Shown here piece after piece: positions 1-34,893 of a stretch of DNA of 64,000 nucleotides; position 1 is the first letter of the stretch, and every line of letters begins with the position of its first letter. Source of the DNA: Desulfobotulus pelophilus (GTDB lineage Bacteria; Desulfobacterota; Desulfobacteria; Desulfobacterales; ASO4-4); assembly GCF_026155325.1 (NCBI RefSeq), contig NZ_JAPFPW010000010.1:1-64000 (forward strand), in the 5' to 3' direction. Both the position numbers and the translations under genes were made by a program. The notes under the pieces were generated by a model. The model was not told the origin of the DNA and ran no database searches. It worked only from the letters and a program-made list of their open reading frames with translations.

Positions 1-32
1 ACCATGGCCGATAGCCGCAAGTCCATGGACAG

Positions 33-261
33 GTCGCCCCCCATGCGGGGGCGTGGATTGAAACGCCGATTGATTCAAAATAACCAAAATCTTCCCAAGT
101 CGCCCCCCATGCGGGGGCGTGGATTGAAACACAAAGGCCCTGGCCGCATTCCGGAAGCGGGCGCGTCGCCCCCCATGCGGGGGCGTGGATTGAAACTCAC
201 CCTTATCAGAAGAGATGTGGAAGGAACGGGTCGCCCCCCATGCGGGGGCGTGGATTGAAAC
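33..261 (+). CRISPR. Type I-C CRISPR array, trailing end (4 repeats)
   Basis: Four identical 32-bp repeats lie at 33-64, 99-130, 165-196 and 230-261. They begin GTCGCCCCCC, contain the palindromic pairing CGCCCCC/GGGGGCG, and end ATTGAAAC, the 3' handle typical of type I-C (Dvulg) repeats. Complete spacers are 34, 34 and 33 bp (65-98, 131-164, 197-229); bases 1-32 are the end of a further spacer. The ATTGAAAC end sets transcription left to right, so the leader, the newest spacers and the cas genes should lie beyond base 1. The last repeat is undegraded, and no further repeat follows 261. The subtype is inferred from the repeat alone, because no cas gene is in the window. Confidence 0.96.
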
Positions 262-408
262 TGGCCACTATATAAAAAGAAAAAAACATTTTTAATACCC
301 CACCCGGAAATACAGAACATACATTATTGTAAACAGCCGCTTGATACTGTCAGAATAATCATCATAGAAAACTGCCAGACCCTTTTTTATACATTACCAG
401 CCTGTTTT

Positions 409-3515: not shown

Positions 3516-5174
3516 GTGAAACCAGACTGTAAAAAAATAATGACTGATTTTTCCGGTTTCGCCATAAAGTATCTTCATCATCCATATGCTCTCCGCCTTT
3601 CTCTTGCCCTTCTGCTGGCAAGCGGACTGGCAGGCTTAAGCCTTCCTTCCGGTCCTCTGATCTGGCTGCCCCTTGCAGCCCTTGTTCCCTTTTTTATGGC
3701 CCTTCGGGGATGTCAGCCTGCAAGAGGGTATGCTCTGGGATGGGCAGGCGGCAGCCTCTTCTGGCTGATTTCCACCTTCTGGATATATAGCGGTTGCCGT
3801 GAACTCATGGGCTGGTCTGTACCAGCCTCACTCACTGCCACCCTGCTCTTTGTTTTATATCAGGGCCTTCCCTACGGACTTGCGGGCCTTGTCTGCGGCA
3901 TTGCCAACAGATATGGAAAAACAGCAGGCCCTTTTTTCACCGCAGGTATTTTCACCCTTTTCATTGCCATCTGGCCCGGACTCTGCCCCGGCAGTCCTGC
4001 CATAAGCCTTTATACATGGACCAGAATCATACAGATAGCAGACATCGGGGGAATGCATTTCGTACTCTTTTTCATGTTCCTCTCCAATGTCTTTCTGGCA
4101 GAAATCCTGAGTCCTTCCCCATTCAAAGAAAAAATACGATATTGCACGATTTTTATTCTTCTGCTTTGCCTTGTGCTGGGCTACGGCAGCCTTCGCCTTA
4201 ATCAGCTAAAAACTTTGGCAACCTCCCATACTGAATCCCGCATAAGTGTCCGCACCATACAGCCCAATATCCCATTCAGGACAGACCCTTTAAACCAAAA
4301 CCCGCTGAAAAGTAACCACCGGATCATGGGGCAGCTCACCGAAGAATCCTCTCAGCATCTGGCACCGCCGGATCTTATTCTCTGGCCGGAAGGCCCCGGT
4401 ACTCCTGCCTGCGATAACCTGGATATGAAAGTCCTTGCCCGGTTAGAAAAAATCAGCGGCAGCCCCATTCTTTTTACCTGCACAGAATATATTTATCGTT
4501 TGAAAAAGCAGGAATCCCTAATAAACCCTGACGGATCGGAAAGGCTTCCGGTCATTCCCATGCGGGAACTCAAGGCCATGTATAACAGCATGGCCCTGCT
4601 GAAAAACGGACAGATCAAAGAATTTTATCGTAAAACAAGACTGGTTCCCTTTGGAGAAGCCACACCCTTTGGAGAACATTTGCCTATTTTAAGAAAGTTT
4701 ATTGGAAAACCCTATGAATTCAATCGTGGACCCGGCCCGGCTCTCCTCTCTTTGCAAGATGATCTGCAAGTACAGCCCCTCATCTGCTTTGAAAGCGGTT
4801 TTCCGGACATCAGCCGCTCTGGGGCTGCTCTGGGGGCGGATGCCTTTGTCACGGTTGCCAATGACGGCTGGTTTGTGCATGAAAAAGCAGCAGAACTCCA
4901 CCTTGGCCTGGCACTGTTCCGGGCTGTGGAGCAGCGCCGTCCCATGATCCGTGCCACCAACACGGGTATGGGCGCCCACATTGCTGCCACAGGCGAAATT
5001 ATAGAAGGCACAAAAACTCCCATGGATCAGACTACTTTCCGTCAGGCCAGTCTCCATGTTCCAGATGTGCAGACACCTTATCAGCTCATGGGAAATATCT
5101 GGCTTTGGGTTTTAACACTCATTCTTATAATGACCCGATATTCATCCCTGAATAAAAAGACAGGATTCGTGTAA
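3516..5174 (+). CDS. lnt: Apolipoprotein N-acyltransferase
   Basis: 552 aa. It transfers the third acyl chain to the N-terminal Cys of lipoproteins in the inner membrane, which indicates a Gram-negative cell. Several N-terminal membrane helices (about residues 27-230) are followed by a nitrilase-like periplasmic domain. The catalytic triad is present: Glu292 (LILWPEG), Lys373 (FYRKTRLVPFGE) and Cys424 (LICFE), and a last helix is near the C-terminus. GTG 3516 is preferred because AAGGCAAGA precedes it; the in-frame ATG at 3540 has no ribosome binding site. A segment near 4346-4443 has a degraded copy at 6508-6599. Confidence 0.9.
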   Translation: MKPDCKKIMTDFSGFAIKYLHHPYALRLSLALLLASGLAGLSLPSGPLIWLPLAALVPFFMALRGCQPARGYALGWAGGSLFWLISTFWIYSGCRELMGWSVPASLTATLLFVLYQGLPYGLAGLVCGIANRYGKTAGPFFTAGIFTLFIAIWPGLCPGSPAISLYTWTRIIQIADIGGMHFVLFFMFLSNVFLAEILSPSPFKEKIRYCTIFILLLCLVLGYGSLRLNQLKTLATSHTESRISVRTIQPNIPFRTDPLNQNPLKSNHRIMGQLTEESSQHLAPPDLILWPEGPGTPACDNLDMKVLARLEKISGSPILFTCTEYIYRLKKQESLINPDGSERLPVIPMRELKAMYNSMALLKNGQIKEFYRKTRLVPFGEATPFGEHLPILRKFIGKPYEFNRGPGPALLSLQDDLQVQPLICFESGFPDISRSGAALGADAFVTVANDGWFVHEKAAELHLGLALFRAVEQRRPMIRATNTGMGAHIAATGEIIEGTKTPMDQTTFRQASLHVPDVQTPYQLMGNIWLWVLTLILIMTRYSSLNKKTGFV

Positions 5175-5181
5175 CGAAATT

Positions 5182-5566
5182 TCACCGGGTAAACAGCCCG
5201 GTCCCCTCCTGTGCCACCCTACGGCAGGCATCAAGAAACTTTTCATTCACCTCATCACCATGCAGGGTCATACGAAGAAACCCCTGATTCTGAATACCTC
5301 TAAGACGATTCAGGTTAGCCGTAAGAAAGCCCTGCTCTGCCAGAAGGCCATGGAGGGCATCCGCTCCGAGATCTGTGTGACGGAACATAAACACAACAAA
5401 CATACCAAGATGATTCCTACTTATCCATACGGGGCTTCAGGCCTGGAAGAATTAAACGTCACCTTGTTAACATCAACAAAACGGCCACATGCCAACAATC
5501 TTGCCATGGCAAGTTCTCCTGTTCCATCACAGCAGAATAAGAGGCAGGCCAATAAGCATGGCTGAT
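5182..5566 (-). pseudogene. Decayed PLP-dependent aminotransferase (class I/II, HisC/CobD-like), C-terminal remnant
   Basis: The longest open piece (5182-5403, 73 codons) reads LLAEQGFLTANLN, then FLRMTLHGDEVNEKFLDAC, matching the C-terminal end of fold-type I aminotransferases (LRITVGTxEEN), including the substrate-binding Arg. Upstream on the same strand (5404-5566) further pieces such as ARLLACGRFVDVNKVTF read in other frames, so frameshifts separate them, and the N-terminal two thirds including the PLP lysine are missing. It is convergent with lnt (7 bp apart). A second copy of its last 168 bp, about 96% identical by eye, lies at 6593-6760. The exact aminotransferase type is uncertain. 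Confidence 0.65.
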
Positions 5567-5741
5567 TCAGGTCGTTTGTTTATCGTATATTCCTATGGCC
5601 TCGCTTGACCAGTTTTTATAATACGCCCTTGGAAAAATAATGATCACCAATGGCCATAAAAAATGAGCCCAACGGTAAGGCTGAGGCTGAAACGGGTACA
5701 GATCCAAAGTAGACTGGTTACTATAAGGAATTTTTAAACAC

Positions 5742-5770
5742 AAAAAACCCGCTCCACTATGGGAACGGGC
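5742..5770 (-). terminator. Rho-independent terminator
   Basis: On the minus strand CCCGTTCC (5769-5762), a 6-nt loop, then GGAGCGGG (5755-5748) forms an 8-bp stem with one G-T pair, followed by TTTTTT. It ends the transcript of the DUF1566 gene just upstream. The stretch from 5567 to 5741 holds no recognisable gene. Confidence 0.85.
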
Positions 5771-5810
5771 TTATATTACAAAAACAGGTTGCATTACAAA
5801 AAGGCAAAAA

Positions 5811-6308
5811 TCACTGTCCGGCGCGAACAAGACGTACACGGAAGTTGTCGCTCTTGTGGCTGTTGCCAACAGCTCCGTATCTGAAATGGATGCCCAACGC
5901 ATAGGTTCTGAGGCTGCCATTAGGCGTGGAAGACCAAAACTTATATGGACCAGGAAAAACATTCTGATCATAAGGTGCCAGAGTCTTCAACTCATCAATG
6001 TTCGGAACCCGAAATCCACCCGAAGCTGTCACTCTTACTGCATCATCCCAGGTTCCTTCCCAGGCTGTTCCGCTACAGCCTGAACCTGTCCAAGTCTGAC
6101 CATAAGCACAGCGCTGCCATTCCAGGCCCGTACTCGTATCCCTGACTATGCCACCGTTGCTTCCAGCGACCTCTTGAAACCGGGAAGGATCGAACGGCTG
6201 CTGCGCTGCCTGTACAGCTCCTGTAACACCCCAAAGCACCATCATCCCCAAAAAAATTACCAGTTTTTTTCTGAAACGCCCCTTACTATGAACCTGTTTT
6301 TCTTTCAT
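5811..6308 (-). CDS. Secreted DUF1566 (Lcl C-terminal domain) protein
   Basis: 165 aa. A long signal peptide (positive residues to about 15, hydrophobic 16-30) has a predicted cut after AVQA. The mature part has the DUF1566 pattern: RDTSTGLEWQRC, then TWDDAVR, FRVPNIDELKTL, FWSSTP and FRVRLVR near the end. The fold resembles formylglycine-generating-enzyme/C-lectin domains and is often found in surface or secreted proteins of Desulfobacterota; its function is unknown. The start is ATG 6308, because AAAAAGGAAAA lies just upstream. It is a single-gene transcript ending at the 5742-5770 terminator and sits between two scrambled pseudogene stretches. Confidence 0.8.
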   Translation of the reverse strand: MKEKQVHSKGRFRKKLVIFLGMMVLWGVTGAVQAAQQPFDPSRFQEVAGSNGGIVRDTSTGLEWQRCAYGQTWTGSGCSGTAWEGTWDDAVRVTASGGFRVPNIDELKTLAPYDQNVFPGPYKFWSSTPNGSLRTYALGIHFRYGAVGNSHKSDNFRVRLVRAGQ

Positions 6309-6435
6309 TGTTTTTTCCTTTTTAAAATGTTTCTTCAATACTTCACTTCGTCATCAAACCTTTTGATGCTGGCCTTTAAAGAAGAGTTTTATGAGCCATC
6401 AAGGCTGACCGAACAATTCATTTGTAATGGTAATT

Positions 6436-6760
6436 GCAACAAACATACCAAGATGATTCTTACTTGTCCATACGGGGCTGCTAGGCCTGGAAGAATTATA
6501 AACGACACCTCAGCCATTCGACATACTCCAGCGGATCTAATCCTCTGGCCTGAAGCCCCGGCATATCGGCCTGCGACTACCTGGATATCAAAGCCCGGTC
6601 CCCTCCTGTGCCACCCTGCGGCAGGCATCAAGAAACTTTTCATTCACCTCATCCCCATGCAGGGCCATACGAAGAAACCCTGATTCTGAATACCTCTAAG
6701 ACGATTCAGGTTAGCCGTAAAAAAGCCCTGCTCTGCCAGAAAGCCATGGAGGGCATCCGC
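6436..6760. pseudogene. Mosaic of copied fragments (aminotransferase 5' part / lnt / aminotransferase 3' end)
   Basis: Three consecutive degenerate copies of sequence found to the left. 6436-6507 matches 5394-5462 (for example ACATACCAAGATGATTC in both). 6508-6599 matches the inside of lnt, about 4346-4443 (around CTCTGGCC and ACCTGGATAT). 6593-6760 matches 5196-5363 at about 96% by eye. The lnt/aminotransferase join coincides with the shared hexamer GCCCGG. This is what a tandem duplication of the lnt-aminotransferase segment would leave after an internal deletion. No intact reading frame survives. Confidence 0.75.
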
Positions 6761-6966
6761 ATGACCAAGGAAGCCATCAACGCCAACCTCGATGTGGGCG
6801 GACTGGAAACAGCCCTTCAGATGGAAGACCGCAACCAGATGATGATTGCCTATACCTACCGCATGACACCGCATCCTGAAAAGCTCCGGGGGTCCGCTTC
6901 TGCCATGGTTTAAGACGTATGAGCCATGACAGACCGGCTCTTTCTTCCCCTCCTCCATTCCGGTAA
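6751..6966 (+). pseudogene. Copy of the 3' end of the enoyl-CoA hydratase gene plus its terminator
   Basis: About 215 bp match 22941-23155, the last ~43 codons of the enoyl-CoA hydratase gene and its downstream hairpin, with scattered substitutions and small indels (roughly 90% by eye). The copy is fused to the aminotransferase fragment exactly at GGGCATCCGC (6751-6760), a 10-mer present in both parents (5354-5363 and 22941-22950). The hairpin arms CTGCCATGG...CCATG are partly decayed. Nothing recognisable follows from 6967 to 7161. Confidence 0.8.
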
Positions 6967-7161
6967 ATTCACAAATCCGATTGCAGAGCACAAAACTGAC
7001 GCCTCCTTCCAACGGGAAAGATCTGGAAAAAGAAGAAATTTTCATATAAGAAATCATTATTGTGGATCGGAAATATATGAATGCCGGATTCGGCACATCG
7101 CCATGGGGCAGGTCATGGAGTTCTGACAGTAAGGCAATCATTTTCAAGCAGGAAATATGAC

Positions 7162-8780
7162 ATGAAACCTGTCGGATATCTCGTTGGCGGCACAAGTCTT
7201 TTTTTTGCTGGCTTACATTTGCTCAGCTCTGGATTGTGCAGGATGACCGGACGGCGGTTCCTCTTGCATTTTGTCAAGTGGGTTGGCACCTATACCAAGG
7301 CAGGAATGGTGGGGTTTGTCACAGGCTTTTTGTCCCAGTCCATGTCCGCCCTGTCCTTCATTGTGAGCAGCCTTGTGGGCGCAGGGATGCTTCCTGTAAA
7401 ACGGGACATGATGGTAATCTTTTGGGCCAACGCCGGTATTGGAATTATGATTCTTCTGGCCGTGCTGGACATCAAGGTCCTTGTTCTTTTCGTTCTGGGA
7501 GCTGCCGGAATCTGTTTCGCCTTTAAAAAACCACGGCATATGGAAAATATAGGCCAGACGCTGTTTGGCGGTGCCATGCTGCTTTACGGTCTGATCATGC
7601 TCCGCACCGGGGCAGAGCCCCTGGCCGCCATGCCCTGGTTTGAGGCTTTTCTTTTCTCCGGGGACAGTCATCCTATCTCATCTCATTTCTCATAGGGGTC
7701 CTGCTCACGGTTCTCTGCCAGTCTTCAACAGCGGTTTCCATTCTGGCCATTGCCCTGACCCAGGTGGTTCGCTTTTCCATGGAACAGACCATGATGATTA
7801 TCTGCGGAACCAATATCGATTCAGGGGCCGTCAACTGAATACTTGCCACGACCATCCGGGGCGCCCAGAAACAACTGATCATGTCTCAGGTCTTTTTCAA
7901 CATCGCCGCAGCACTGGTCTTCGTATCCCTGTTCTATCTGGAGATTATAACCGGTATCCCCCTTGTCATGGCTCTGGTACAAAGCTTCCCTACTCCCATG
8001 GAGCAGCAGGCAGCCCTTGTCTGTCTGATCTTCAACTGCGGGGGAGCCGTGGTTTTGTCAATGTTCCTGACCCCGTTTTACAAAATTGTCGCCCGTGGAT
8101 GGTCAACCACAAGCCAAGAAGAATGGTCCAGAACCGCTTTTTTAGGCGACGAAATGGCGGATGCGCCGGAAGTCGCACGGACGCTCCTTACCAGAGAACA
8201 GGCCCGTTTGATGTGCTTTACTGTCCGCTACCCGGAGATTTTGCAAAAACCTATGGAAGATGAAGACGGCAAAGTCATGGAAGCCCTGCATGCTTCTTTT
8301 CAGACGGTTTCCAGAGAAATCGAATCGCACGCAGCAGAAATCATAAAACATCCCCTTGATCCCGAAGGGCTGGAAATTCTGCTCATCGCCCAGAACAAAC
8401 AGAAACAGATGGAAAACCTGAATGATCTTCTGTACCAGTTCACACAGACATGCCCTAATCTGTCCGGCGGCTTGCAGGATATCTTTCAGCCGACCTTTCT
8501 TCAGGGGCTGGATTTTCTGCTGCAAACCGCCTGTGAGGCAGAAAACTCCCATGACCCTGCGGATTCGGAACATCTGTTACATCTGACCCACGACAAGGCA
8601 AAGGTTTTTCAATCCATCCGCAACTCGTATCTGCGCAGTGGAAATAAGCTGAGCTTGGAAGACCGCCGTGTCTTTCTGGACCTGACCGGCCTGTTCGAGC
8701 GCATCGGCTGGACCATGGACCGCATTGGCAAACTGCAGTATGCGCAAAAGCTTTTGGAACGTTCCGGAATTGCGGAGTGA
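7162..8780 (+). pseudogene. Na/Pi cotransporter family protein with PhoU-like tail, disrupted
   Basis: The first part (7162-7695) carries membrane helices and the first half-site QSMSALSF. The frame then shifts near 7655-7670 (one base apparently missing), and the other frame continues with the second half-site QSSTAVS. An in-frame TGA at 7836-7838 follows, then open reading from 7881 to 8780. That last part finishes the transporter helices and ends in a PhoU-like helical domain (about 8150-8770). Two independent lesions argue for a pseudogene, or for sequencing error, rather than recoding. AGGA lies upstream of ATG 7162. An intact protein would be about 540 aa (NptA/YjbB-like phosphate transport). 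Confidence 0.75.
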
Positions 8781-8825
8781 ACCTGTAAACCCCTTACTCT
8801 TCTTAAACATTCCGGAGAACCATCC

Positions 8826-10076
8826 ATGTTTCTTTCCATTCTGCAAAGTGGTTTTGGCTTGCTGGCCTTTATGTTCATCGCCTGGCTTCTTTCCGAAAAC
8901 CGAAAGGCCGTGAGCCCTCGACTGATCCTTTCCGGGCTTGGCCTGCAGTTTCTTCTGGCCCTGATTCTTCTGAAAGTTCCAGCTTTTGCAGATTTTTTCC
9001 TTTTTCTGAACAAGGCTGTGGAAGCCCTGGAAGCAGGAACAAGGGCGGGCACCACCTTTGTTTTCGGGTATCTGGGCGGTGGTCCCCTTCCCTTTGAAGA
9101 GCCATGGTCCGGTGCGGCTTACATCTTTGCCTTCCGGGCACTTCCCGTCATCGTCGTTACCGGTGCCCTCAGCACCCTTCTCTATCACTGGAAAATCATT
9201 CCTGTGCTGGTCCGGGGATTCTCCGCACTCCTCCAGCGGGTTATGGGCATTGGCGGTGCCTTGGGCGTGGGCTGTGCCGCCAACATTTTTGCCGGTATGG
9301 TGGAATCTCCTCTTTTTGTCAGACCCTATGTGAAATCCATGACACGCAGCGAACTCTTCACCCTCATGACCTGCGGCATGGCCACCATCGCAGGAACGGT
9401 TCTGGTGCTGTACGCAGGCATTATCGGCCAGATGGTTCCCGGTGCTCTGGGTCATATTCTGGCAGCATCCCTGATCAGCGCACCCGCATCCATTCTCATT
9501 GCAGGCATCATGATCCCGGAATCTTCACCGCCCACCCTTGGTGAAATCAGCCCTCCCGTTGAAAGCAGAAGCTCCATGGATGCCGTGGTCAAGGGCACCA
9601 CCTTCGGCCTTCAGATGTATATACAGATCGTCGCCCTTCTGGTGGTGCTGGTCGCTCTGGTCAGCATGGTCAATCAGGCCCTGGGACTTCTGCCTGACAT
9701 GGCAGGCGAAACCCTCACCCTCCAGAGTATTCTCGGGCAGATCATGCGGCCTCTGGTCTGGCTTGCTGGCATTCCATGGCATGAATCCCATGTGGCGGGC
9801 AGCCTCATGGGCACAAAGGTCATCCTCAACGAACTGCTGGCCTACCTCGACATGGCGGCCCTTCCTGAAGGCAGCCTTTCTCCCCGGAGCAGCCTCATCA
9901 TGACCTATGCCCTCTGCGGTTTTGCCAACATCGGAAGCCTTGGAATTCTCGTCGGCGGGCTTTCCAGCATCGCACCGGAGAGGCTGGATGAAATTGTCAC
10001 ACTGGCCCCCCGATCCATTCTGGCAGGCGTACTGACCACACTGATGACAGGTGCCATGGTCAGCATATTCTACTGA
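8826..10076 (+). CDS. Concentrative nucleoside transporter (CNT/NupC family)
   Basis: 416 aa, about 10 membrane segments. Features of CNT proteins are visible: GYLGGGPLPFEEP in the first half, GALGVGCAANIFAGMVESPLF in the gate region, then CGMATIAGTVLVLYAG, and a conserved C-terminal part (GFANIGSLGILVGG). The family imports nucleosides with Na+ or H+. GGAGAACC precedes the ATG. It follows the Na/Pi pseudogene by 45 bp and precedes the GPP34 gene by 29 bp, so these were probably one operon. Confidence 0.85.
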   Translation: MFLSILQSGFGLLAFMFIAWLLSENRKAVSPRLILSGLGLQFLLALILLKVPAFADFFLFLNKAVEALEAGTRAGTTFVFGYLGGGPLPFEEPWSGAAYIFAFRALPVIVVTGALSTLLYHWKIIPVLVRGFSALLQRVMGIGGALGVGCAANIFAGMVESPLFVRPYVKSMTRSELFTLMTCGMATIAGTVLVLYAGIIGQMVPGALGHILAASLISAPASILIAGIMIPESSPPTLGEISPPVESRSSMDAVVKGTTFGLQMYIQIVALLVVLVALVSMVNQALGLLPDMAGETLTLQSILGQIMRPLVWLAGIPWHESHVAGSLMGTKVILNELLAYLDMAALPEGSLSPRSSLIMTYALCGFANIGSLGILVGGLSSIAPERLDEIVTLAPRSILAGVLTTLMTGAMVSIFY

Positions 10077-10105
10077 CTAAATAAAAATTTACTGAAAGGA
10101 AACCC

Positions 10106-10768
10106 ATGCTGACCTTTGCCGAAGAAATCCTCCTTTTAGCTCTGGATGACCAGATGGAGGCCTTCATGCCCCTGCCTCCCCAGGTCCTGAAACTGGCCCT
10201 CTCCGGTGCCTTTCTTCTGGAACTGGCCATCTCCGGACATATTGATACGGATCTTGAAACCCTCAGGGTCATCCGCACCACACCCACTGGCAATCCGCTT
10301 CTGGATGAAGCACTGGTTCTTCTTCAGAAATCACAGGGTCTTCATTCCACAGGCTACTGGCTGAAAGAACTTGTCTGGAACATGCCACAGAAAAAGGAAA
10401 GGGTGCTGCAGGCCCTTGTGGAAAAGGGTGTCCTCAAGGTGGAAAACCATAAAATTCTGTGGGTTTTCACCATACGCCGGTATCCCATGATGGATGGCAA
10501 GGAGGTGCAGGAAGTGCGTTCACGGCTGCGGGATCTCATTACTGGTGATGCCATTCCCGATCCGAGGGACGCCGTTCTTGTGGGCCTTGTACATGCCTGC
10601 CATCTTTTTGAAAATCTTTTCACCAGAGAAGAGCGGCAACTCTATGCACCACGTATCGAGAATCTCGCCAGACTGGAACTCATCGGCAGGGAGGTGAATC
10701 GGGCCATTACAAATGCCTCCATCGCCTTTGCAGAATCCATGTCCGCATCCATTTCAGGAATGGTCTGA
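10106..10768 (+). CDS. GPP34 (GOLPH3-like) family phosphoprotein
   Basis: 220 aa, full length for PF05719. It starts LTFAEEILLLALDD, matching the family's N-terminal signature, with GAFLLELAISGHI and RDAVLVGLVHACHLF further on. In eukaryotes GPP34/GOLPH3 binds PI4P at the Golgi; bacterial members are mostly known from actinobacteria and myxobacteria and have no settled role, with peripheral membrane binding the usual guess. AAAGGAAACCC precedes the ATG. It is the last gene of the transporter operon and is followed by a long hairpin. Confidence 0.85.
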   Translation: MLTFAEEILLLALDDQMEAFMPLPPQVLKLALSGAFLLELAISGHIDTDLETLRVIRTTPTGNPLLDEALVLLQKSQGLHSTGYWLKELVWNMPQKKERVLQALVEKGVLKVENHKILWVFTIRRYPMMDGKEVQEVRSRLRDLITGDAIPDPRDAVLVGLVHACHLFENLFTREERQLYAPRIENLARLELIGREVNRAITNASIAFAESMSASISGMV

Positions 10769-10769
10769 A

Positions 10770-10811
10770 CAACTCAGCAGCCATCGTCTAAAAACGGTGG
10801 CTGCTGAGTTG
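10770..10811. terminator. Long hairpin after the GPP34 gene
   Basis: CAACTCAGCAGCCATCG (10770-10786) pairs with CGGTGGCTGCTGAGTTG (10795-10811): a 17-bp stem with one G-T pair and an 8-nt loop. No T-run follows, so it may act as a transcript-stabilising hairpin or a weak terminator. From 10812 to 10997 no gene is recognisable. Confidence 0.65.
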
Positions 10812-10997
10812 TATGTTGGCATGATAATTTTCTACACATAAGAAAAGGTCAGCAGAGCCAAAAAGCCACCCGGCGAAACGACATGTTCAAGCTCCTGCAT
10901 GCCCGATCATTGACATTGCCAGCTATGAACAAGGGTCACTTTATCGAAGATACCAAAAAATTCAGGTTCTTATGGTGTGAGAGTCGGGTTGACCTCA

Positions 10998-11030
10998 CGG
11001 CTTCCTCACGGCTTCCTCACGGCTTCCTCA
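10998..11030. repeat. 11-bp tandem repeat, three copies, overlapping a stop codon
   Basis: CGGCTTCCTCA occurs three times in a row at 10998-11008, 11009-11019 and 11020-11030, with a partial unit on the left (CCTCA). On the minus strand it reads TGAGGAAGCCG and contains the stop codon of the small lysine-rich gene. Because 11 is not a multiple of 3, a change in copy number would change the end of that protein. Confidence 0.9.
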
Positions 11031-11130
11031 TGGGTTGCTTATCCTTCTTGTTCTTATCCTTCTGCTCCTTCTGCGTTACCTTTTGTTTCTGCTCTTTGTT
11101 TTTATCCTTTTTTCCGCCTTTGTCTCCCAC
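11017..11130 (-). CDS. Small lysine-rich hypothetical protein (37 aa)
   Basis: Starts at GTG 11130 with GAAAGGAG 7 bases upstream. The protein begins MGDKGGKKDKNKEQKQK and ends KKDKQPMRKP: highly charged, disordered, no membrane segment. Very similar short MGDKGxKKDK-type proteins are annotated as hypothetical in other proteobacteria (from memory of the family; not checked). The stop lies in the 11-bp tandem repeat. It is too short for usual gene length cut-offs. The stretch 11131-11331 upstream shows nothing recognisable. Confidence 0.65.
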   Translation of the reverse strand: MGDKGGKKDKNKEQKQKVTQKEQKDKNKKDKQPMRKP

Positions 11131-11331
11131 TGTGTGCTCCTTTCATTTACTTTATCGTTTCGCTGTAAGTAGTATCGCACCAAGCCACTTCTGCAATAAA
11201 AACGATCCTTACGGAGAATGCCAACGCCGTATTCCACAGGAAACTACGGCTGCCCAGCAAGCCTTAAAGCCACACAAGATTTGAAAACTATTTGACTTAT
11301 ATTAAAGAGGCATGTTTTTTATAATGACGCA

Positions 11332-12030
11332 TTACTCATTCATAATCTTTATAAGCCTTTCATCCAGACAGGTGCGTAGAAAGGTATTCATCGGTTTCTG
11401 ATTAGCAGTCCCATAAAAATCGAGCATCAATTAATTAAACTCCTGCTGCCTCTTTGCAGGAAGATTAATCGCAGGGTATCCGCAATTCAGCAAAAGCCCG
11501 TTCATAATAAAACGGCCCATACGCCTGTTCACATCATAAAAAAACTGGCACCGGGCCATTGTAAGAAAAAAATGGATAGCACGATCATAAATATCTGGTA
11601 TATCATATGAATCAGAAACCATCTTTTCAAAAAGGGCAGGTAAGGAATCCGCCGGAGGCGGCATATACTCTGTCCCTGCGATGGTAACCCCACCAGACCT
11701 GAACTTCCCTCACTCCAATGCCTCGTCCTTACCCGCTATCAGATGCAGGGCACAAACTTGTTCACGGGTGATTTCAAACTGATTTTTCTCAATCAAAACA
11801 AACAAAGTACGCCAGGCATCAATTTGGTTCAGTGCTATTTGCTGGTCAGACAATCTATGTCCTCCAACCGTAATTCCATCCATTAATGTCTGAATTTCAG
11901 GTATGGTTAAGTTAATCCCTTCCAGATTTACTGCATCGCACACCAACTCAGCCAATTGGCGCTTAGCAAGCATTATTGCCTTTGCTTTGTCTGGTTTCAT
12001 GCCCCACTGAGTTTCATTCATCTCATTCAC
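11332..12030 (-). pseudogene. Fic family protein, two in-frame stop codons
   Basis: One continuous frame of about 233 codons is interrupted twice: TGA at 11710-11712 where the family has Trp (ALEWG), and TAA at 11431-11433 (between QQEFN and LMLDFY) where Glu is expected. Recognisable parts are the inhibitory-helix region (NLEGINLTIPE), VGGHRLSDQQ, MARCQFFYDVNRRMGRF at the Fic site, and a normal C-terminus after the second stop. The usual catalytic His of HPFxxGN is Gln and the first Gly is Val, so the active site is also degraded. Both changes are single base substitutions from a sense codon, implying recent inactivation. Confidence 0.8.
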
Positions 12031-13247: not shown

Positions 13248-13432
13248 CCGGGGCCTACCTCTTTTCAGAAAGAATGATTTTACCAGATGAATATGCCAGT
13301 AAAGACTCTCTGCGCCGCTGATTCATTCTGCCAGCCAGCCTCATTTTCAAAAATAATCGTTTTGAACGATGAAGATTTAGGCAAAGCCCCTTCTGCGCCG
13401 CAGGTTCATCATGATTTTTCAAGGCCGGAGCT

Positions 13433-13506
13433 AAAAAAGCACCCCGAATGAATCGTAAGGACCTGCTGCAAAGGCAGCGGATTGGGTGCCCTTTTTCTGA
13501 TCAATC
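13433..13506. terminator. Branched bidirectional terminator
   Basis: GCACCC (13439-13444) pairs with GGGTGC (13494-13499), enclosing an inner hairpin CTGCTG/CAAAGGCAGCGG. It is flanked by A-run on the left and T-run on the right, so it works on both strands; here it ends the minus-strand glpQ transcript. The rest of 13248-13575 holds no gene, only a near-repeat of TCTGCGCCGC at 13309 and 13392. Confidence 0.7.
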
Positions 13507-13575
13507 TGGCTTAATGTTACAAGCCCCTTCCTTCAGGGATGGGTAAATGACGACGCCAGACAGTTTCCTTTCTCC

Positions 13576-14871
13576 TTACCAGCCATAGGTATGGAAGATC
13601 TCTTCCAGCCCTGCATGGATGGTTTTTCCATAGAACCGGAGAAGCACATCGGGCCTGTTGGTAAACATGCCATCCACTCCGTTTGCATTTGCTCTGACCA
13701 TATCCACTGTTTCATCAAGGGTATAGGCATGGACCAGCATACCCATGTCATGGGCCACCCCATTAAACCATGGATCGATAAGGTCCATGTAGCTCTGATC
13801 TCCCTTTTCCGGATCATTGTATCCGGCCAGCCGGGTTCCGGGACCTACCGCTGAAGCACCGTTATCCTTTGCCCATTGCAGCCACATCCTGTAATTTTCT
13901 TTGGAAAGGATTTCCCATTTTGCACTGAACTGCGCATAGGTTTCCCCTTCTGCCTGATTCAGGGGTTCATCCTTTCTTAAAGGACCATAGGTTTTGGCAA
14001 GGTTAGCATCAGACGCAAACTGATCCACCTTCTCACTTCCCCAGTCCATGGCTTCCTGTTTTGTGTACAGCCAGAGCAGAAAGCACGTAGGAGTTTCCGG
14101 CATGTATTTGTTGAGCAGCGGCAGACTTTCCGGCTCAAAGGTCTGGAGGATGGTTCTGCCTCTGGTGAACTGGACGCCAACATTTTTGGCAGGGTCAAAT
14201 CCGGCGGGAGCTTTTTTTTCGGAAGTGGCCAGCCAGCCCCTTTTTTTAAGAAGCTCATAAAGATCCTTTTCTATGCCGGGAAAAAAGGTGGAAACCTTTG
14301 TTTCGATGTAAAGTCCGGGCCTGTTACCATTATCATTGGGGTCCGGCTGACCATTGGCAAGCTTTCCCTCCGCTATGTTAATGACTTCCTCCAGGGTGGA
14401 AATTCTTGCGTTCACAAAGGAGCTTCTGGCTCTGTCAGGAAACTTGCCATTGAACCATGATCCTGCGTCCAGACTCTTCAGTTCTTCAAGGGTAAAATCG
14501 CTCATCCGGTTTTTGGCTCTATAGGGAAAGACCCTAGAAATATTAGATTTCTCAGAAAGATCATTGCAATGGGAAGCAATCAGAACGCCATCTTTCGTTC
14601 TCTGGAGATCAATCTCAAGATATTCGGCCCCCATCTGCCGTGCAAGAATATAGGCCTGTTCCGTAGATTCCGGAGCGTAATACGAAGCGCCTCTGTGGGC
14701 GATGACGGCCTTGTGCGGCACACCGGCATTGCTGCTGAGAAGCTCTCCCCTGCCTGCCTTTACCGTATTCTGAAATGTCTTTATGCCAGCGGCTTCCCTG
14801 CTTCCCACGCAGCCCGTCATCAAAACCGCTGCGGTGATAAAAAAGGACACGACCTGTGACAATCCCTTCAT
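13576..14871 (-). CDS. glpQ: Glycerophosphodiester phosphodiesterase, lipoprotein
   Basis: 431 aa. A lipoprotein signal peptide ends in LMTGC (Cys about residue 21). The GDPD barrel begins with VIAHRGASYYAPEST (catalytic His and substrate Arg), then EIDLQRTKDG (metal Glu/Asp) and ASHCND (second catalytic His); the C-terminal strand reads GVDGMFTNRPD. It is close to the GlpQ group that hydrolyses glycerophosphodiesters in the periplasm to glycerol 3-phosphate. AAAGGAGG lies upstream of the ATG. It is 36 bp downstream of cstA on the same strand. Confidence 0.9.
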   Translation of the reverse strand: MKGLSQVVSFFITAAVLMTGCVGSREAAGIKTFQNTVKAGRGELLSSNAGVPHKAVIAHRGASYYAPESTEQAYILARQMGAEYLEIDLQRTKDGVLIASHCNDLSEKSNISRVFPYRAKNRMSDFTLEELKSLDAGSWFNGKFPDRARSSFVNARISTLEEVINIAEGKLANGQPDPNDNGNRPGLYIETKVSTFFPGIEKDLYELLKKRGWLATSEKKAPAGFDPAKNVGVQFTRGRTILQTFEPESLPLLNKYMPETPTCFLLWLYTKQEAMDWGSEKVDQFASDANLAKTYGPLRKDEPLNQAEGETYAQFSAKWEILSKENYRMWLQWAKDNGASAVGPGTRLAGYNDPEKGDQSYMDLIDPWFNGVAHDMGMLVHAYTLDETVDMVRANANGVDGMFTNRPDVLLRFYGKTIHAGLEEIFHTYGW

Positions 14872-14907
14872 GGATAAACGCCTCCTTTTTTAATGGAATC
14901 AAACAGT

Positions 14908-16644
14908 TCACGAATGGGAAGAACGGAGTATTCTTCTCATCTCCTTCAGCGCAACAACCATGACAGCCAGCGCAAGCACCATCAGCAGGATATCGGTTAC
15001 AATGAGGGGCATTTTTCCAGCTGGAATGTATTTGTCAAACAGCATCACCCACAAAGCCCATACCGTAGTGACCAGCATCAGGATGGCAGGAATAAGGGTA
15101 AAGAGTGTCGGCTTTTTCCGCCTGGCAAGCCAGACCGATACAGCAATCAGTCCAAGGGCTGCCAGAAGCTGATTTGCGGCTCCAAATATGGGCCAGATCA
15201 GTGTAAAGGCATTGGTCCAGCTCAGCCAGAGCATCAGGCCAGCCGATAGCGCTGCATTGAAAATATAAGAGCGAAGAATGGCCGGAACTTTTTTGAACAA
15301 AACCGACCATAGTTCTTCAAAGAGATAGCGGTTGAGCCGAACGGCGGTATCCAGCGTGGTCACCACAAAACCTTCGACCATGAGAATCCCGAAAATAGTT
15401 CCAAAAGCCACGGGGAATCCAAAGGCCATATGGAGAAGGGATCCCATGCTCAGGGCAAAGGCAAGTATGGGGTTGGACGCTCCCGATTCCGGCCAGACAA
15501 TCTGCAGGTAGGTGTCAAAGGAAAGACCGGCAGCAAGGGTTAACAGGACGGCCATTGCAAAAACGCCCTCTAAAACCATTCCGCCGTACCCGATCTTTCG
15601 GGCATCCGATTCAAGACGGATCTGCTTGGAGACTGTCCCACCGGCCACCAGGGAATGAAAGCCAGAGATGGCACCACAGGCGACGGTAATGAAGAGAAAG
15701 GGCCAGATCATCCCGAGTTTCAGGTTGCCCTGAGCCACATTAAAGGCCGGAGCCTGAGTAACGGCTCCTTTCAGACCAGCCACAACAATACCAGCCAGCA
15801 ACAAAAGAATACCAGCAAAGAGAATAAATGAATTCATGAAATCACGGGGCTGCAGGAGGGTCCAGACCGGAGCACCGCAGGCTATCACCACATACACCGT
15901 GAGAATAATCATCCAGGTATGCATGCCAACGGATACGGGAAAGAAGATGCCAAAAATTACGGACAGGGTCACGATGGTAACCGCAACAGGCGTGACAATG
16001 GCAGAACGAATATTTCTGCGATACAGCATCCAGCCGATCAGGGGGGCAAACAGCGTCAGAATAATCACGGATGTGGATGCAATGCCACCGATTTTAGCCC
16101 TCTCAATGCCATCGGCACCCACGATGGTCTGAAGAAAACCGGAGCCGCTTATCTTCATCTCAGCAACAGGAACCAGAGAGGTCAGGGCCGTTGCGCTGAG
16201 GCCCAGAAAGGCGGATGTGACGAGAAGGATCATCACCGTTGTAAAGGCAATGAAAAGAAAAAAACCGGCCTTTCCCAAAGTCGAGCGGGAGACTTCGGCC
16301 ATGGAACGGCCTTTTTCCCGGACACTGGCAAAGAGACAGGTATAATCGTGGACGGCTCCAAAGAAAACCGTTCCCAGAAGAAGCCAGAGCCAGACAGGGA
16401 TGATACCAAACAGCATGGCCACCGTGGGACCGACAATGGGTCCGGCACCGGCAATGGAAGCAAAATGGTGAGAAAATGCAATTCCTGTCCGGGCCGGAAC
16501 ATAATCCCGTCCGTCCTCCATGGCGATTGCCGGAGTGGGATTCTGGTCATTCTCATCAAAAATACGGGCAATCATCCTGCCGTAAAACAGATAGCCTGCA
16601 CCCAGAAATACCAGACCAGCCAAAAGAAGCACAAGAATATTCAC
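14908..16644 (-). CDS. cstA: Carbon starvation protein A family peptide/pyruvate transporter
   Basis: 578 aa, about 16 membrane segments. The start MNILVLLLAGLVFLGAGYL and the block GRDYVPARTGIAFSHHFASI, then AGAGPIVGP, are diagnostic of CstA/BtsT. Members import peptides or pyruvate on nutrient limitation. The E. coli protein is about 700 aa; this shorter form (~580) is common in anaerobes. It probably shares an operon with glpQ (36 bp gap). Confidence 0.9.
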   Translation of the reverse strand: MNILVLLLAGLVFLGAGYLFYGRMIARIFDENDQNPTPAIAMEDGRDYVPARTGIAFSHHFASIAGAGPIVGPTVAMLFGIIPVWLWLLLGTVFFGAVHDYTCLFASVREKGRSMAEVSRSTLGKAGFFLFIAFTTVMILLVTSAFLGLSATALTSLVPVAEMKISGSGFLQTIVGADGIERAKIGGIASTSVIILTLFAPLIGWMLYRRNIRSAIVTPVAVTIVTLSVIFGIFFPVSVGMHTWMIILTVYVVIACGAPVWTLLQPRDFMNSFILFAGILLLLAGIVVAGLKGAVTQAPAFNVAQGNLKLGMIWPFLFITVACGAISGFHSLVAGGTVSKQIRLESDARKIGYGGMVLEGVFAMAVLLTLAAGLSFDTYLQIVWPESGASNPILAFALSMGSLLHMAFGFPVAFGTIFGILMVEGFVVTTLDTAVRLNRYLFEELWSVLFKKVPAILRSYIFNAALSAGLMLWLSWTNAFTLIWPIFGAANQLLAALGLIAVSVWLARRKKPTLFTLIPAILMLVTTVWALWVMLFDKYIPAGKMPLIVTDILLMVLALAVMVVALKEMRRILRSSHS

Positions 16645-16787
16645 AGGTACCGCCTTTAACTAAAAAGAATCATTGATCCTAGCAACGGTCCACCCCGTAA
16701 TGACCCGCGCCCCCTCGTCCAACAACACTGGCATGGCTAATGCAACAGCAATGCCAGAATAAAACCCCATCCTTACCGGAAAAAACA

Positions 16788-17246: not shown

Positions 17247-17294
17247 GCCCGGTTTCGGGAAAATAACAGACCATGAGAAAATCCCTCTTCATGG

Positions 17295-20952: not shown

Positions 20953-22185
20953 ATGCCGGGAAGCCCTCAGGATCTCTTGTTCCATCCCCTCACCCTGCCC
21001 TGCGGCCGGGTGATAAAAAACCGTTTTTTCAAATCCGCCATGAGCGAAATTCTCGGAACCAAAGACAACCGCCCCAGTCAGGCACTGGTTCGCCTTTATG
21101 AAGGCTGGGGCAAAGGCGGGGCCGGGATTCTTGTGACGGGCAATGTCATGGTGGACAGAAATGCTCTGGGGGAACCCCGCAATGTGGTCATGGACTCCGA
21201 AGAAGATCTTCCCCTTCTCACCTCCTGGGCCGAGGCCGGTAAAAAACAAGGTTCTGAAATATGGGTACAACTGAATCATCCGGGAAAACAGAGCCCCAAA
21301 AACCTCTCGCCAAAGCCCGTGGCCCCTTCGGCCATCCCCCTTCATCCGGGTCTTCAGCGTTTTTTCGCCACGCCAATAGCCCTTGAAGAAGGAGACATCC
21401 ATGGCATCATAGCCTCTTTTGGCCGATCCGCAGGGATAGCGAAAAAAGCGGGCTTCACCGGCGTGCAGATCCATGCGGCCCACGGCTACCTCGTTTCCCA
21501 GTTTCTTTCTCCTTTGCACAATCAGCGCAAAGATGCCTGGGGCGGCAACCTTGAAAACCGCATGCGTTTTCTCATGGAGGTGTACCGGGCCATACGCAAA
21601 GAAGTGGGACCGGATTTTCCCGTTGGAGCCAAACTCAATTCCGGGGATTTCCGCAAGGAAGGTTATCATCCGGAAGAGGCGGCCGAAGTGGCCGCCTCTC
21701 TGGCCGCAGAAGGTCTGGATCTGCTGGAAATCTCCGGCGGCAGCTATGAAAAGCCCGTCATGATGGCGGGTATGCCCGGCGGCAGTGAGGGCTATTTCCT
21801 GGAGTATGCCCGTAAGGTGCGCCAGACAACAGCCATCCCCCTTGTGGTAACCGGCGGATTCCGCACGGCTTCCGGCATGGTGGCAGCACTGGCTTCAAAA
21901 GACACGGACATGGTGGGACTGGGTCGTCCCATGGTTCTGGACCCCAGCCTGCCTCTGAACATTGCCGGGGACAATGGCATGGCATACAAAAGCCTTGTCA
22001 CGCCGAAATCCACTGGGATAGCTGCTGTGGACAACATCGCCATGCTGGAGATCACATGGTATGAACGGCAGATGGGCTATCTTGCCAGAGGCCTGCAGCC
22101 AAGGCCCCATGAAAACGTCTGGACATCCATCATCAAGATGCTTCTGGTAGACGGAATTACCCGGTTCAGAAGGCGTCGGTCATAG
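20953..22185 (+). CDS. NADH:flavin oxidoreductase (old yellow enzyme / dienoyl-CoA reductase-like)
   Basis: 410 aa, a single TIM-barrel FMN domain without the Fe-S and FAD domains of FadH-type dienoyl-CoA reductases. Seen: WVQLNHPGKQ (substrate/FMN region), HAAHGYLVSQFLSPLHNQR, WGGNLENRMRF, then LVVTGGFRT and DMVGLGRPM for phosphate binding. The start has AAAGGAGG, and the gene follows acyl-CoA dehydrogenase by 12 bp. Context suggests reduction of an enoyl- or dienoyl-CoA intermediate or of an unsaturated carboxylic acid; the substrate is not known. Confidence 0.88.
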   Translation: MPGSPQDLLFHPLTLPCGRVIKNRFFKSAMSEILGTKDNRPSQALVRLYEGWGKGGAGILVTGNVMVDRNALGEPRNVVMDSEEDLPLLTSWAEAGKKQGSEIWVQLNHPGKQSPKNLSPKPVAPSAIPLHPGLQRFFATPIALEEGDIHGIIASFGRSAGIAKKAGFTGVQIHAAHGYLVSQFLSPLHNQRKDAWGGNLENRMRFLMEVYRAIRKEVGPDFPVGAKLNSGDFRKEGYHPEEAAEVAASLAAEGLDLLEISGGSYEKPVMMAGMPGGSEGYFLEYARKVRQTTAIPLVVTGGFRTASGMVAALASKDTDMVGLGRPMVLDPSLPLNIAGDNGMAYKSLVTPKSTGIAAVDNIAMLEITWYERQMGYLARGLQPRPHENVWTSIIKMLLVDGITRFRRRRS

Positions 22186-23070: not shown

Positions 23071-23089
23071 AGACTTTGGGAGTCTGGTT

Positions 23090-23122
23090 CTGCCATGGCT
23101 TAAGACGTATGAGCCATGGCAG
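23090..23122 (+). terminator. Hairpin ending the acyl-CoA operon
   Basis: CTGCCATGGCT (23090-23100) pairs perfectly with AGCCATGGCAG (23112-23122); a bulged extension (GTCTGG/CCGG) lengthens the stem. It is followed by CTCTTTCTTCCCC, a pyrimidine tract rather than a clean T-run. Confidence 0.65.
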
Positions 23123-23251
23123 ACCGGCTCTTTCTTCCCCTCCCCGTTCCGGTAAAAATTCAAAAAACGCCACTTCTGATAGCCGATAAAACGGGTAATC
23201 TGACCTCCCCGTCTGACCTCCCATGACAACCCCGCCACCATGGCCAAGGCA

Positions 23252-24199: not shown

Positions 24200-25785
<1,586 letters not shown>

Positions 25786-25789
<4 letters not shown>

Positions 25790-27012: not shown

Positions 27013-27014
27013 TC

Positions 27015-33238: not shown

Positions 33239-33684
33239 GAATGGATAATTGACAATGGAGAATGGGAAGCAGGTCTCAGACAAAAAAATGCTGTCAGGGA
33301 CAAATCATTTTTGTTTGCATTGCGGATTGTGAAATTATGCCGTTATCGTTAACACGGAAAAGAAAGAATTTGTATTAAGCAAGCAACTGCTTCGCTCTGG
33401 AACTGCGATTGGGGCTTTAGTGAGGGAAACTGAACAGGCGGAGAGTCAAGCCGATTTTATACACAAAATGGCTATTGCTCTGAAAGAAGCAAATGAAACG
33501 GACTACTGGATAGATCTGCTGCATGAGGCAGAAATTATTAATCATACAGAATTTAAATCCATTAATCCTGATATAACTGAATTACTGAAACTTTTAACAA
33601 GTATAATCAAATCCTCCAGATCAAAGACGGTACGTTGATGCAAAAAAGCAATCATTCTCCATTATCCATTATCCATTCTCAAAT
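33234..33684. mobile_element. Inverted-repeat element 4, carrying the S23/four-helix-bundle remnant
   Basis: The left arm at 33234-33265 (TGAGAATGGATAATTGAC...) and the right arm at 33650-33684 are inverted copies matching at about 28 of 32 positions, built from a 7-8-bp unit near GGATAAT. The left arm begins within the hsdR stop codon region, and the right arm encodes the first residues of the YgjP protein. It has the same architecture as element 1, with a different repeat unit and passenger. Confidence 0.7.
33255..33638 (+). pseudogene. Four-helix-bundle (S23 / 23S rRNA intervening-sequence) protein, frameshifted
   Basis: The C-terminal open part (33420-33638) reads ETEQAESQADFIHKMAIALK then ANETDYWIDLLHEAE and SINPDITELLKLLTSIIKS, a clear match to PF05635/TIGR02436. 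Just upstream in the same frame NTEKKEFVLSKQLLRSGTAIG continues it. Before about 33350 the family sequence FALRIVKLCRY lies in another frame, and TGA (33330s) stops this one, so at least one frameshift (near the TATCGTTAAC at 33343-33352) has broken it. Confidence 0.75.
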
Positions 33685-34375
33685 AAGATATGGGCAAAAG
33701 ATCATATTTTACAGCCTGCTGTACTGTGACAGAAAAACCATGGAAATAGCCGTGCATCCTGATGGCACGGTTATGGTCAAAGCGCCGGTAGAGTCCGATA
33801 TCACAGTGATAGAAAGGAAAATAATAAAACGGGCTCGCTGGATTCTTAAGACACTGAATTATTTTAAGCAGTTTAATCCAAAGACACCTGAGCGCTGCTA
33901 CGTGACCGGAGAGACCCACCTGTATCTTGGAAAGCAATACCGACTGAAAGTGACCCAAGGACAGGAAAACTCCGTAAAACTGACCCGTGGTTTTTTTCAT
34001 ATCACCTGCCGGAACGAGCCAACTCCAGATACTGCAAGGAAACTTTTAAATCAGTGGTATTCAGAAAAGGCACAGCTCCAGTTTGCAGAAAGTATGCATC
34101 GCTGCTGGCAGAAGTTCCGTAGTCCGGGCATTGAGAAGCCAACGTTATCCATTAAGCGAATGCAAAAAAGATGGGGCAGCCTTTCGGACAAGGGCACAGT
34201 AACCCTCAATACAGATCTCATCAAAGCGTCTAAAGAATGCATAGACTATGTTGTTACCCATGAGCTGTGCCACCTGAAATGTCATGATCATGGACCTGAA
34301 TTTTATAAGCTCCTCGACTCTCTCATTCCGGGCTGGGAAAAGATCAAACACAAACTCGAACGGAGTATGCTGTGA
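33638..34375 (+). CDS. YgjP-like (DUF45) zinc metallopeptidase
   Basis: 245 aa. The zinc motif HELCH at residues 208-212, followed by HDHGPEF, and the upstream WGSLSDKGTVTLN identify the YgjP/SprT-like family (PF01863), frequent as the last gene of type I restriction operons; the substrate is unknown. ATG 33638 overlaps the stop of the S23 remnant. The first ~18 residues (SNHSPLSIIHSQ) are encoded by the right arm of inverted-repeat element 4, so the native N-terminus has been replaced or extended. Confidence 0.85.
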   Translation: MQKSNHSPLSIIHSQIRYGQKIIFYSLLYCDRKTMEIAVHPDGTVMVKAPVESDITVIERKIIKRARWILKTLNYFKQFNPKTPERCYVTGETHLYLGKQYRLKVTQGQENSVKLTRGFFHITCRNEPTPDTARKLLNQWYSEKAQLQFAESMHRCWQKFRSPGIEKPTLSIKRMQKRWGSLSDKGTVTLNTDLIKASKECIDYVVTHELCHLKCHDHGPEFYKLLDSLIPGWEKIKHKLERSML

Positions 34376-34893
34376 CCATAAAATCCCATAAAATGACAAA
34401 CCGCTCTATGATCGGTCAAGACCGCCATCTTTGAAGGGCACTGAAAAAAAACTCCGCGCCAAACAGATCACCGGGCATATGATGCAAAGTAATTCCTGAT
34501 CAGGCAATGGGAACATGCCGCAACCTCTACCCCTTCCCATTCCTGTTCCCAATCAGGCCCATAACGGGCTTATCACTCTCATGGCACAGCCGGTCGTCGA
34601 CCACGCTGCAATAAACATTCATCATCAGGTTACGGGTTGCTTTCTTTCCATGTTTTTTTGTGCTCTTCGTGCGTCCACAGGCCCTAACTCTTGGCAGGTA
34701 TTCAAGAATAAAACAGGTCCAGTGCCATAGAAGACTGGTGATAAATCTGAAGCTTATGAGCAATGGCTTCCCTCTGGTTCTTCTTACTCTGTAAAAACTC
34801 TGCACGGTACGAGGCCTTGAGGGTCAAAATAATGCCACCGGCTACCCAGACCCTTGCTGCAAGCCCCATACAAAGAAGAGGAAAGGATATCAC
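34376..34893. other. Gap without a recognisable gene
   Basis: 518 bp between the restriction island and the esterase gene. A 55-codon minus-strand frame (34724-34875) with a hydrophobic start could be a small gene but has no ribosome binding site. A short piece near 34655 (TTTTTTTGTGCTCTTCGTG) resembles the arm repeats of the island elements. This is probably the island's right boundary. Confidence 0.4.

What the first reader, a model, noticed from the sequence alone, without database searches (positions are those of the whole stretch)
6436..6966. Chimera joined at a 10-bp microhomology shared with a gene 16 kb away
Aminotransferase-remnant sequence switches to the enoyl-CoA hydratase 3' end exactly at GGGCATCCGC, present in both parents (5354-5363 and 22941-22950) and at the join (6751-6760). 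With the preceding lnt fragment joined at GCCCGG, the region records microhomology-mediated copying, including a distant donor.
Basis: seen in the sequence. Interest (0 to 1): 0.6.

Follow-up and report, generated by a model that had tools for sequence, protein, structure and literature searches.

The report
Deletion scar at a 10-base repeat
The odd join of two gene ends is best read as the scar of an ordinary deletion between two short identical sequences, left where a block of genes once stood that now lies elsewhere in this bacterium's genome.

Summary
In two congeneric genomes (G001, G002) lnt, aminotransferase and ECH lie together in one order. In G002 the aminotransferase is intact (401 aa), and the 10-mer stands in it and in ECH as direct repeats 5,865 bp apart; collapsing them gives this join. 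The Na/Pi-cotransporter after the ECH stub follows YgjP, the last gene of the ECH block, in G001. So this is best read as a deletion between short direct repeats in a resident ECH block, not copying from a donor 16 kb away. An intact ECH block now lies after the Na/Pi-to-CstA block (order P-Q-R-X in G002, P-q-R-Q-X here). The stub is 93.0% identical to the intact ECH, which is 94.9-95.3% identical to the ECH of the other species, so it is no fresh copy, though an old decayed copy cannot be excluded by identity alone. The mechanism is ordinary; how the second ECH block arose is unresolved.

The parts
3516..5174 (+). lnt (apolipoprotein N-acyltransferase), left anchor of block P
   Evidence: PF20154 and PF00795; 95.1% to G002, 87.1% to G001
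5195..5388 (-). First remnant (AT1): 3' end of the aminotransferase gene, directly after lnt as in G001; a bystander, not the parent of the join
   Evidence: 97.9% to the intact G002 gene over 194 nt
5355..5364 (.). GGGCATCCGC in AT1
5394..5464 (.). Flank of an Lcl gene, repeated at 6437-6510
5811..6338 (-). Lcl_C-domain gene between the two aminotransferase remnants
   Evidence: PF07603, E 5.3e-19
6437..6510 (.). Second copy of the Lcl flank
   Evidence: 90.5% to 5394-5464
6532..6596 (+). lnt fragment, shared with G002
   Evidence: 80.3% to 4369-4434; 97.9% to G002 over 97 nt around it
6592..6760 (-). Second remnant (AT2): 3' end of the aminotransferase gene, at the place of the intact gene of G002
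   Evidence: 96.0% to the G002 gene over 174 nt
6751..6760 (.). Junction: the single retained copy of the direct repeat GGGCATCCGC
6751..6975 (+). ECH stub: 3' end of enoyl-CoA hydratase plus downstream flank, left at the old site of block Q
   Evidence: 90.8% to 22941-23166 with gaps counted; 200/215 bases over 6751-6967
6976..6992 (.). Second breakpoint, ECH flank to the spacer before the Na/Pi gene (place uncertain by about 15 nt)
6993..8780 (+). Na/Pi-cotransporter gene, apparently in broken frames; start of block R; follows YgjP in G001
   Evidence: PF02690 in 7081-7695; 6993-9845 is 91.3% to G001:C72 629-3479
20953..22185 (+). FMN oxidoreductase of the present block Q
   Evidence: PF00724
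22318..23070 (+). Intact enoyl-CoA hydratase; holds GGGCATCCGC at 22941
   Evidence: PF00378, E 8.9e-43
33581..34372 (+). YgjP-like metallopeptidase frame, end of block Q
   Evidence: PF01863, E 1.6e-55
34439..34471 (.). Possible start of the YgjP-Na/Pi spacer after block Q, a hint that Q here was once followed by R
   Evidence: weak: 11 of 1000 shuffles score as high

Best explanation
The chimera is the scar of a deletion between two 10-bp direct repeats. The ancestor carried on one path lnt, a convergent full-length aminotransferase, acetyltransferase, 5'-nucleotidase, FMN oxidoreductase, ECH, type I restriction genes and YgjP, then the Na/Pi and nucleoside transporter block (order P-Q-R-X as in G002; G002 itself lacks the Na/Pi gene there, G001 has it after YgjP). 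In the window's lineage one deletion ran from GGGCATCCGC in the aminotransferase to GGGCATCCGC in ECH and kept one copy of the repeat. A second loss took the rest of block Q up to the Na/Pi spacer. Only 225 bp of the ECH 3' end stayed at the old place. A second, complete block Q stands after block R (order P-q-R-Q-X). Shown: breakpoints, repeats in the relative, gene orders, polarity. Inferred: that slipped mispairing or single-strand annealing made the deletion, and that the second Q arose by tandem duplication or import before the first was lost.
For: G002 holds GGGCATCCGC at L030 reverse complement 6992 (aminotransferase) and 12857 (ECH), same strand, 5,865 bp apart. The three-way comparison shows left parent up to the repeat, right parent after it, no added bases. 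A random join with 10 or more bases of identity has a chance of 2e-5. The aminotransferase is intact in G002 at that site (401 aa, PF00155, E 9.9e-35), so G002 shows the older state: an intact gene cannot be regrown from the scar. G001 has aminotransferase remnant, oxidoreductase and ECH in the same order within about 2.5 kb, and its contig C72 reads YgjP, spacer, Na/Pi, so the scar sits where block Q is expected. Right of block Q this genome resumes the sequence that follows R in G002 (34881-35787 to G002:C9 61617-60710, 72.6%).
Against: No genome with both copies of Q intact was found among the two congeners. In the G001 aminotransferase the repeat has one mismatch (GGGTATCCGC), so G002 alone shows both repeats, and G002 also has one inverted copy at 8460. 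The affinity of the stub is unresolved: informative sites 2 with own ECH, 1 with G001, 0 with G002. Of its 12 private changes 8 lie within 28 columns, which 4 of 10,000 random placements reach. The second breakpoint is unclear. G001 is fragmented and has the end of R upstream of P, which complicates one ancestral order. The chance value assumes evenly placed random joins.
Confidence: 0.83

Rival explanations
1. Template switching during replication or break repair (microhomology-mediated break-induced replication) copied the ECH end from the intact gene 16 kb away into the aminotransferase remnant.
For: Real 10-bp junction identity; an intact putative donor; other short joins nearby. Among the ECH genes compared the stub is nearest to that of this genome, though by little (93.0, 92.6 and 91.6%).
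Against: The parents are collinear and 5.9 kb apart in G002, and the Na/Pi gene follows as it follows YgjP in G001. Stub to own ECH is 93.0%, own ECH to G002 and G001 94.9 and 95.3%, so a copy would have to be old. A copy landing exactly at the old site of ECH would be a coincidence.
Confidence: 0.08
2. Tandem duplication of Q-R followed by complementary losses (tandem duplication-random loss) is the whole history: P-Q-R-Q-R-X became P-q-R-Q-X. This is a history within the best explanation, not against it.
For: Explains order and scar with one duplication and deletions. A weak spacer match after YgjP (11 of 1000 shuffles) suggests that R once followed the second Q.
Against: Oxidoreductase identities (own-G002 86.8, own-G001 86.2, G001-G002 93.0) contrast with lnt (95.1, 87.1, 88.0), so the intact oxidoreductase here looks like another lineage, imported or anciently duplicated. 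blastn found no remnant of R between 34384 and 34800.
Confidence: 0.4
3. The block Q after R was imported from another strain, after which the redundant resident Q was deleted. Also a history within the best explanation.
For: The same oxidoreductase contrast; the window's Q has a full acyl-CoA dehydrogenase, while G002 keeps only a C-terminal piece of it there.
Against: The restriction part of Q is 94.5-95.4% identical among the three genomes (HsdM), so not all of Q is divergent; recombination within Q would be needed.
Confidence: 0.4
4. Assembly artefact.
For: Draft genome of 86 contigs; no reads available.
Against: The join is inside a 152.6-kb contig; both sides carry private substitutions; a 10-bp repeat is too short to mislead an assembler; gene orders beyond both breakpoints agree with relatives.
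Confidence: 0.02

Closest known systems
Deletion between short direct repeats by illegitimate recombination in bacteria
   Same: Two short direct repeats flank the lost segment in the relative; one copy stays at the join; no bases added. PMC3411829 (passages seen) reports 12 of 15 tested putative deletions verified in Salmonella and a deduced cut-off of 8 bp or more of junction microhomology for deletions.
   Different: About 5.9 kb in the G002 arrangement; inferred by comparing species rather than caught in a culture; RecA dependence unknown.
Tandem duplication-random loss of gene blocks
   Same: Order change P-Q-R-X to P-R-Q-X with a stub of the lost copy at the old place.
   Different: The 12 papers listed of 60 (listing and abstract starts only) are on mitochondrial genomes; here a bacterial genome, and the duplicated state was not seen.
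Microhomology-mediated break-induced replication / template switching
   Same: Short identity at the join and an intact putative donor.
   Different: The parents are collinear in the relative; the copy is not near-identical to the donor.

Membership tests
Deletion between short direct repeats | Both repeats, direct orientation, flank the segment in an undeleted relative | tested here: met
   G002, L030 reverse complement 6992 and 12857; in G001 one of the two has a mismatch
Deletion between short direct repeats | One repeat copy kept, no extra bases at the join | tested here: met
Deletion between short direct repeats | Independent of RecA | not testable with these tools
   needs genetics
Template switching (MMBIR type) | Copy near-identical to a donor that stays in place | tested here: inconclusive
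   stub to own ECH 200/215; own ECH to G002 and G001 204/215 and 205/215; not a fresh copy, but decay of an old copy would also give this
Template switching (MMBIR type) | Join not explained by a collinear deletion | tested here: not met
   collinear in G002 and G001
Template switching (MMBIR type) | Several switches in one event | tested here: inconclusive
   lnt-fragment join shared with G002, ECH join absent from G002, so these two differ in age; other joins not dated
Tandem duplication-random loss | Remnants of both lost copies | tested here: inconclusive
   Q stub clear; R remnant weak, 11 of 1000 shuffles
Tandem duplication-random loss | The two Q copies are sisters | tested here: inconclusive
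   informative sites of the stub: 2 with own, 1 with G001, 0 with G002

The most novel reading that the evidence does not exclude
A bacterial genome in which a swap of two gene blocks of about 10 kb or more went through a duplicated intermediate (P-Q-R-Q-R-X) and left a stub with a base-level breakpoint: a bacterial counterpart of the mitochondrial duplication-random loss mode, which would make the path of gene-order change testable in this genus.
Probability: 0.35. Interest if true: 0.4.

Novelty: new member of a known kind. Interest (0 to 1): 0.2.

Why it matters
It shows how a striking 'chimera with a distant donor' in one sequence turns into a plain deletion once relatives are laid beside it. 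As a case it is useful for studying how gene order changes in bacteria: old and new orders, a stub of the lost copy and the exact repeats are in hand.

Tried and rejected
Distant-donor template switching: rejected as the main reading because the parents are collinear in G002. AT1 (5195-5388) as parent: rejected; G002 has the full gene at the AT2 site. Retroelement copying of gene ends: no reverse transcriptase of family PF00078 in this genome, 0 of 1, while the controls rang in 3 of 14. Plasmid origin: no match of 5100-7200 in 72,556 plasmid records; phage records were not searched. Fusion gene: the two pieces code on opposite strands, so no product fuses both. Placing the stub by site patterns led nowhere (2, 1 and 0 informative sites). 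Showing a second spacer copy failed: 6968-7000 against G001 gave 991 of 1000 shuffles as good, and 34384-34520 against 6960-7000 gave 334 of 1000. Other breakpoints nearby carry shorter identity: GGT at the G002 loss of about 5203-5715, and about 3 bases at the G001 loss of about 9846-11332. Literature: listings with abstract starts only; PMC3411829 and PMC2884548 seen as passages.

A mistake of mine, mended: (and 55, which kept the same columns) aligned the stub without a 1-base deletion and a 1-base insertion after the ECH stop. That overstated its divergence (89% instead of 93.0%) and made 13 of 18 private changes look clustered. One search, with gaps allowed, gives 12 private changes, 8 of them in 28 columns. 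The divergence argument against copying is weaker than I first had it; I lowered the best explanation from 0.85 to 0.83 and raised the copying rival from 0.07 to 0.08. The notebook entry on the cluster holds the old figures.

Full report
What is there. The window is bases 1-64000 of contig C10 (152,631 bases) of a 3.66-Mb draft genome in 86 contigs. The genus is Desulfobotulus by inference: a search with the lnt protein returned one locus, on a 19,467-base contig of D. alkaliphilus ASO4-4, at 86% identity, and G001:C46 of the same genus as the window has that same length. Region 5195-6975 is a patchwork: an aminotransferase 3' end (AT1, 5195-5388), an Lcl gene with repeated flanks (5394-5464 and 6437-6510), a 65-base lnt fragment (6532-6596), a second aminotransferase 3' end (AT2, 6592-6760), and the 3' end plus downstream flank of ECH (6751-6975). 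The 10-mer GGGCATCCGC is at 5355, 6751 and 22941 and nowhere else in the window, both strands scanned.

The relatives decide the reading. A search of 40 genomes, the window's own included, matched 8; two others, G001 and G002, are of the same genus. In G002:C9, read in the window's direction, the order is lnt, Lcl gene, lnt fragment, an intact 401-aa aminotransferase on the minus strand (PF00155), an acetyltransferase, a 5'-nucleotidase, a C-terminal piece of an acyl-CoA dehydrogenase, FMN oxidoreductase, ECH, type I restriction genes, YgjP, nucleoside transporter, AbrB-family gene, CstA, and then the sequence that in the window begins near 34.8 kb. In the window the order is lnt, AT1, Lcl, lnt fragment, AT2, ECH stub, Na/Pi gene, nucleoside transporter, AbrB-family gene, GDPD, CstA, a sigma-54 regulator, acyl-CoA dehydrogenase, oxidoreductase, ECH, restriction genes, YgjP, and the same right-hand sequence. 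In short, P-Q-R-X became P-q-R-Q-X. The Na/Pi and GDPD genes are not at this place in G002. In G001, contig C46 reads lnt, aminotransferase remnant, oxidoreductase, ECH, HsdS, HsdM, and contig C72 reads YgjP, spacer, Na/Pi, nucleoside transporter. So the stub lies where the ECH block lies in both relatives. Against a single neat ancestral order, G001 also has the end of block R (window 13338-17263) upstream of lnt.

The join is a deletion junction. In G002 the 10-mer stands in the aminotransferase (L030 reverse complement 6992) and in ECH (12857), in direct orientation, 5,865 bp apart; one more copy is inverted, at 8460. Left parent up to the repeat and right parent after it give the window's sequence with no extra base. 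Of 2,000,000 random joins between those two genes a fraction of 2e-5 had 10 or more bases of identity. Such repeats are not rare as such: 2 pairs of identical 10-mers in direct orientation link the two genes, and 24 pairs more than 2 kb apart are listed for the whole 6.2 kb. In G001 the aminotransferase copy has one mismatch. The polarity is firm because an intact aminotransferase at the same place cannot be rebuilt from the scar.

Is the stub a copy of the ECH gene 16 kb away? With gaps allowed, over 6751-6967, it is 200/215 identical to that gene, 199/215 to G001 and 197/215 to G002, with 3 gap columns each. The intact ECH is 204/215 and 205/215 identical to those of G002 and G001. So the stub is somewhat further from the intact gene than the genes of the three species are from each other. 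It is not a fresh copy, but an old copy that decayed as a pseudogene would look the same, so this does not decide alone. Informative sites are 2 with own ECH, 1 with G001 and 0 with G002: unresolved. The stub has 12 private changes, 8 of them within 28 columns (4 of 10,000 random placements as clustered). Earlier counts of mine on an alignment without those gaps overstated both divergence and clustering. AT2 has 3 private substitutions and one gap in 169 columns among the six copies compared (my count), fewer than the stub, so equal ages of the two halves are not shown.

Where did the second block Q come from? For the oxidoreductase, own-G002 is 86.8%, own-G001 86.2% and G001-G002 93.0%, while for lnt the figures are 95.1, 87.1 and 88.0. 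The intact oxidoreductase in the window is therefore of another lineage than that of G002, an old duplicate or an import. For ECH the contrast is slight (91.6, 91.2 and 92.4%), and the restriction part is alike in the three (HsdM 94.5, 94.9 and 95.4%). After YgjP the window keeps a short stretch like the G001 spacer that leads into the Na/Pi gene (11 of 1000 shuffles as good), a weak hint that block R once followed this Q as well. Duplication followed by loss and import followed by loss remain about equally likely.

Other events at the same place. The lnt-fragment-to-AT2 join is present in G002 and is thus older than the ECH join. G002 lacks about 5203-5715, with GGT shared by both ends, and G001 lacks about 9846-11332. 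The region has lost pieces more than once, with joins of varying identity.

Known mechanisms. PMC3411829 (passages) verified rearrangement junctions with short microhomology in Salmonella cultures, and PMC2884548 (passages) attributes much small-scale diversity in E. coli to illegitimate recombination. That slipped mispairing can do this without RecA is recalled knowledge, not tested here. Duplication-random loss is the usual model in the mitochondrial papers (listing and abstract starts only).

Verdict. A real feature, correctly seen, with an over-dramatic reading: a deletion scar at a 10-bp direct repeat, in a block that was duplicated or relocated. New instance of a known kind; interest low to modest.

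Noticed in passing
window about 6880-6897: 8 of the 12 private changes of the ECH stub fall within 28 columns after the ECH stop codon (4 of 10,000 random placements). This patch was not searched for by itself. Unexplained.
   Followed up: partly
window 30-280: End of a CRISPR-like array: 4 repeat copies at 65-66-base spacing sharing GTCGCCCCCCATGCGGGGGCGTGGATTGAAAC; G002:C6 128.6-133.5 kb has many matches, also near a copy of the radical SAM gene.
   Followed up: partly
window 5811-6338; G001:C8 70575-74079; G002:C43 3325-3989: Lcl_C-domain genes occur in several copies, three on one stretch in G001, and flanks of the window's copy are repeated. Lcl_C domains are recalled as targets of diversity-generating retroelements; no PF00078 reverse transcriptase was found in this genome.
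   Followed up: partly
window 25607-27340: Repeated stretches at the end of hsdM and about 1.5 kb downstream, with an hsdS frame between: the restriction specificity locus looks rearranged.
   Followed up: no
window 6993-8780: The Na/Pi-cotransporter gene appears to be in broken frames.
   Followed up: no
G001:C68, C49, C10, C72, C77: The HsdR-YgjP stretch of G001 is split over several contigs, as if interrupted by repeated elements.
   Followed up: no
L010:22-999 (own contig C2); L035 (G002:C10): A CN_hydrolase gene weakly similar to lnt (65.8% over 234 columns) lies about 2.6 kb from an intact acetyltransferase-aminotransferase pair; G002:C10 has a further copy of the pair whose aminotransferase is split over two frames.
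   Followed up: no
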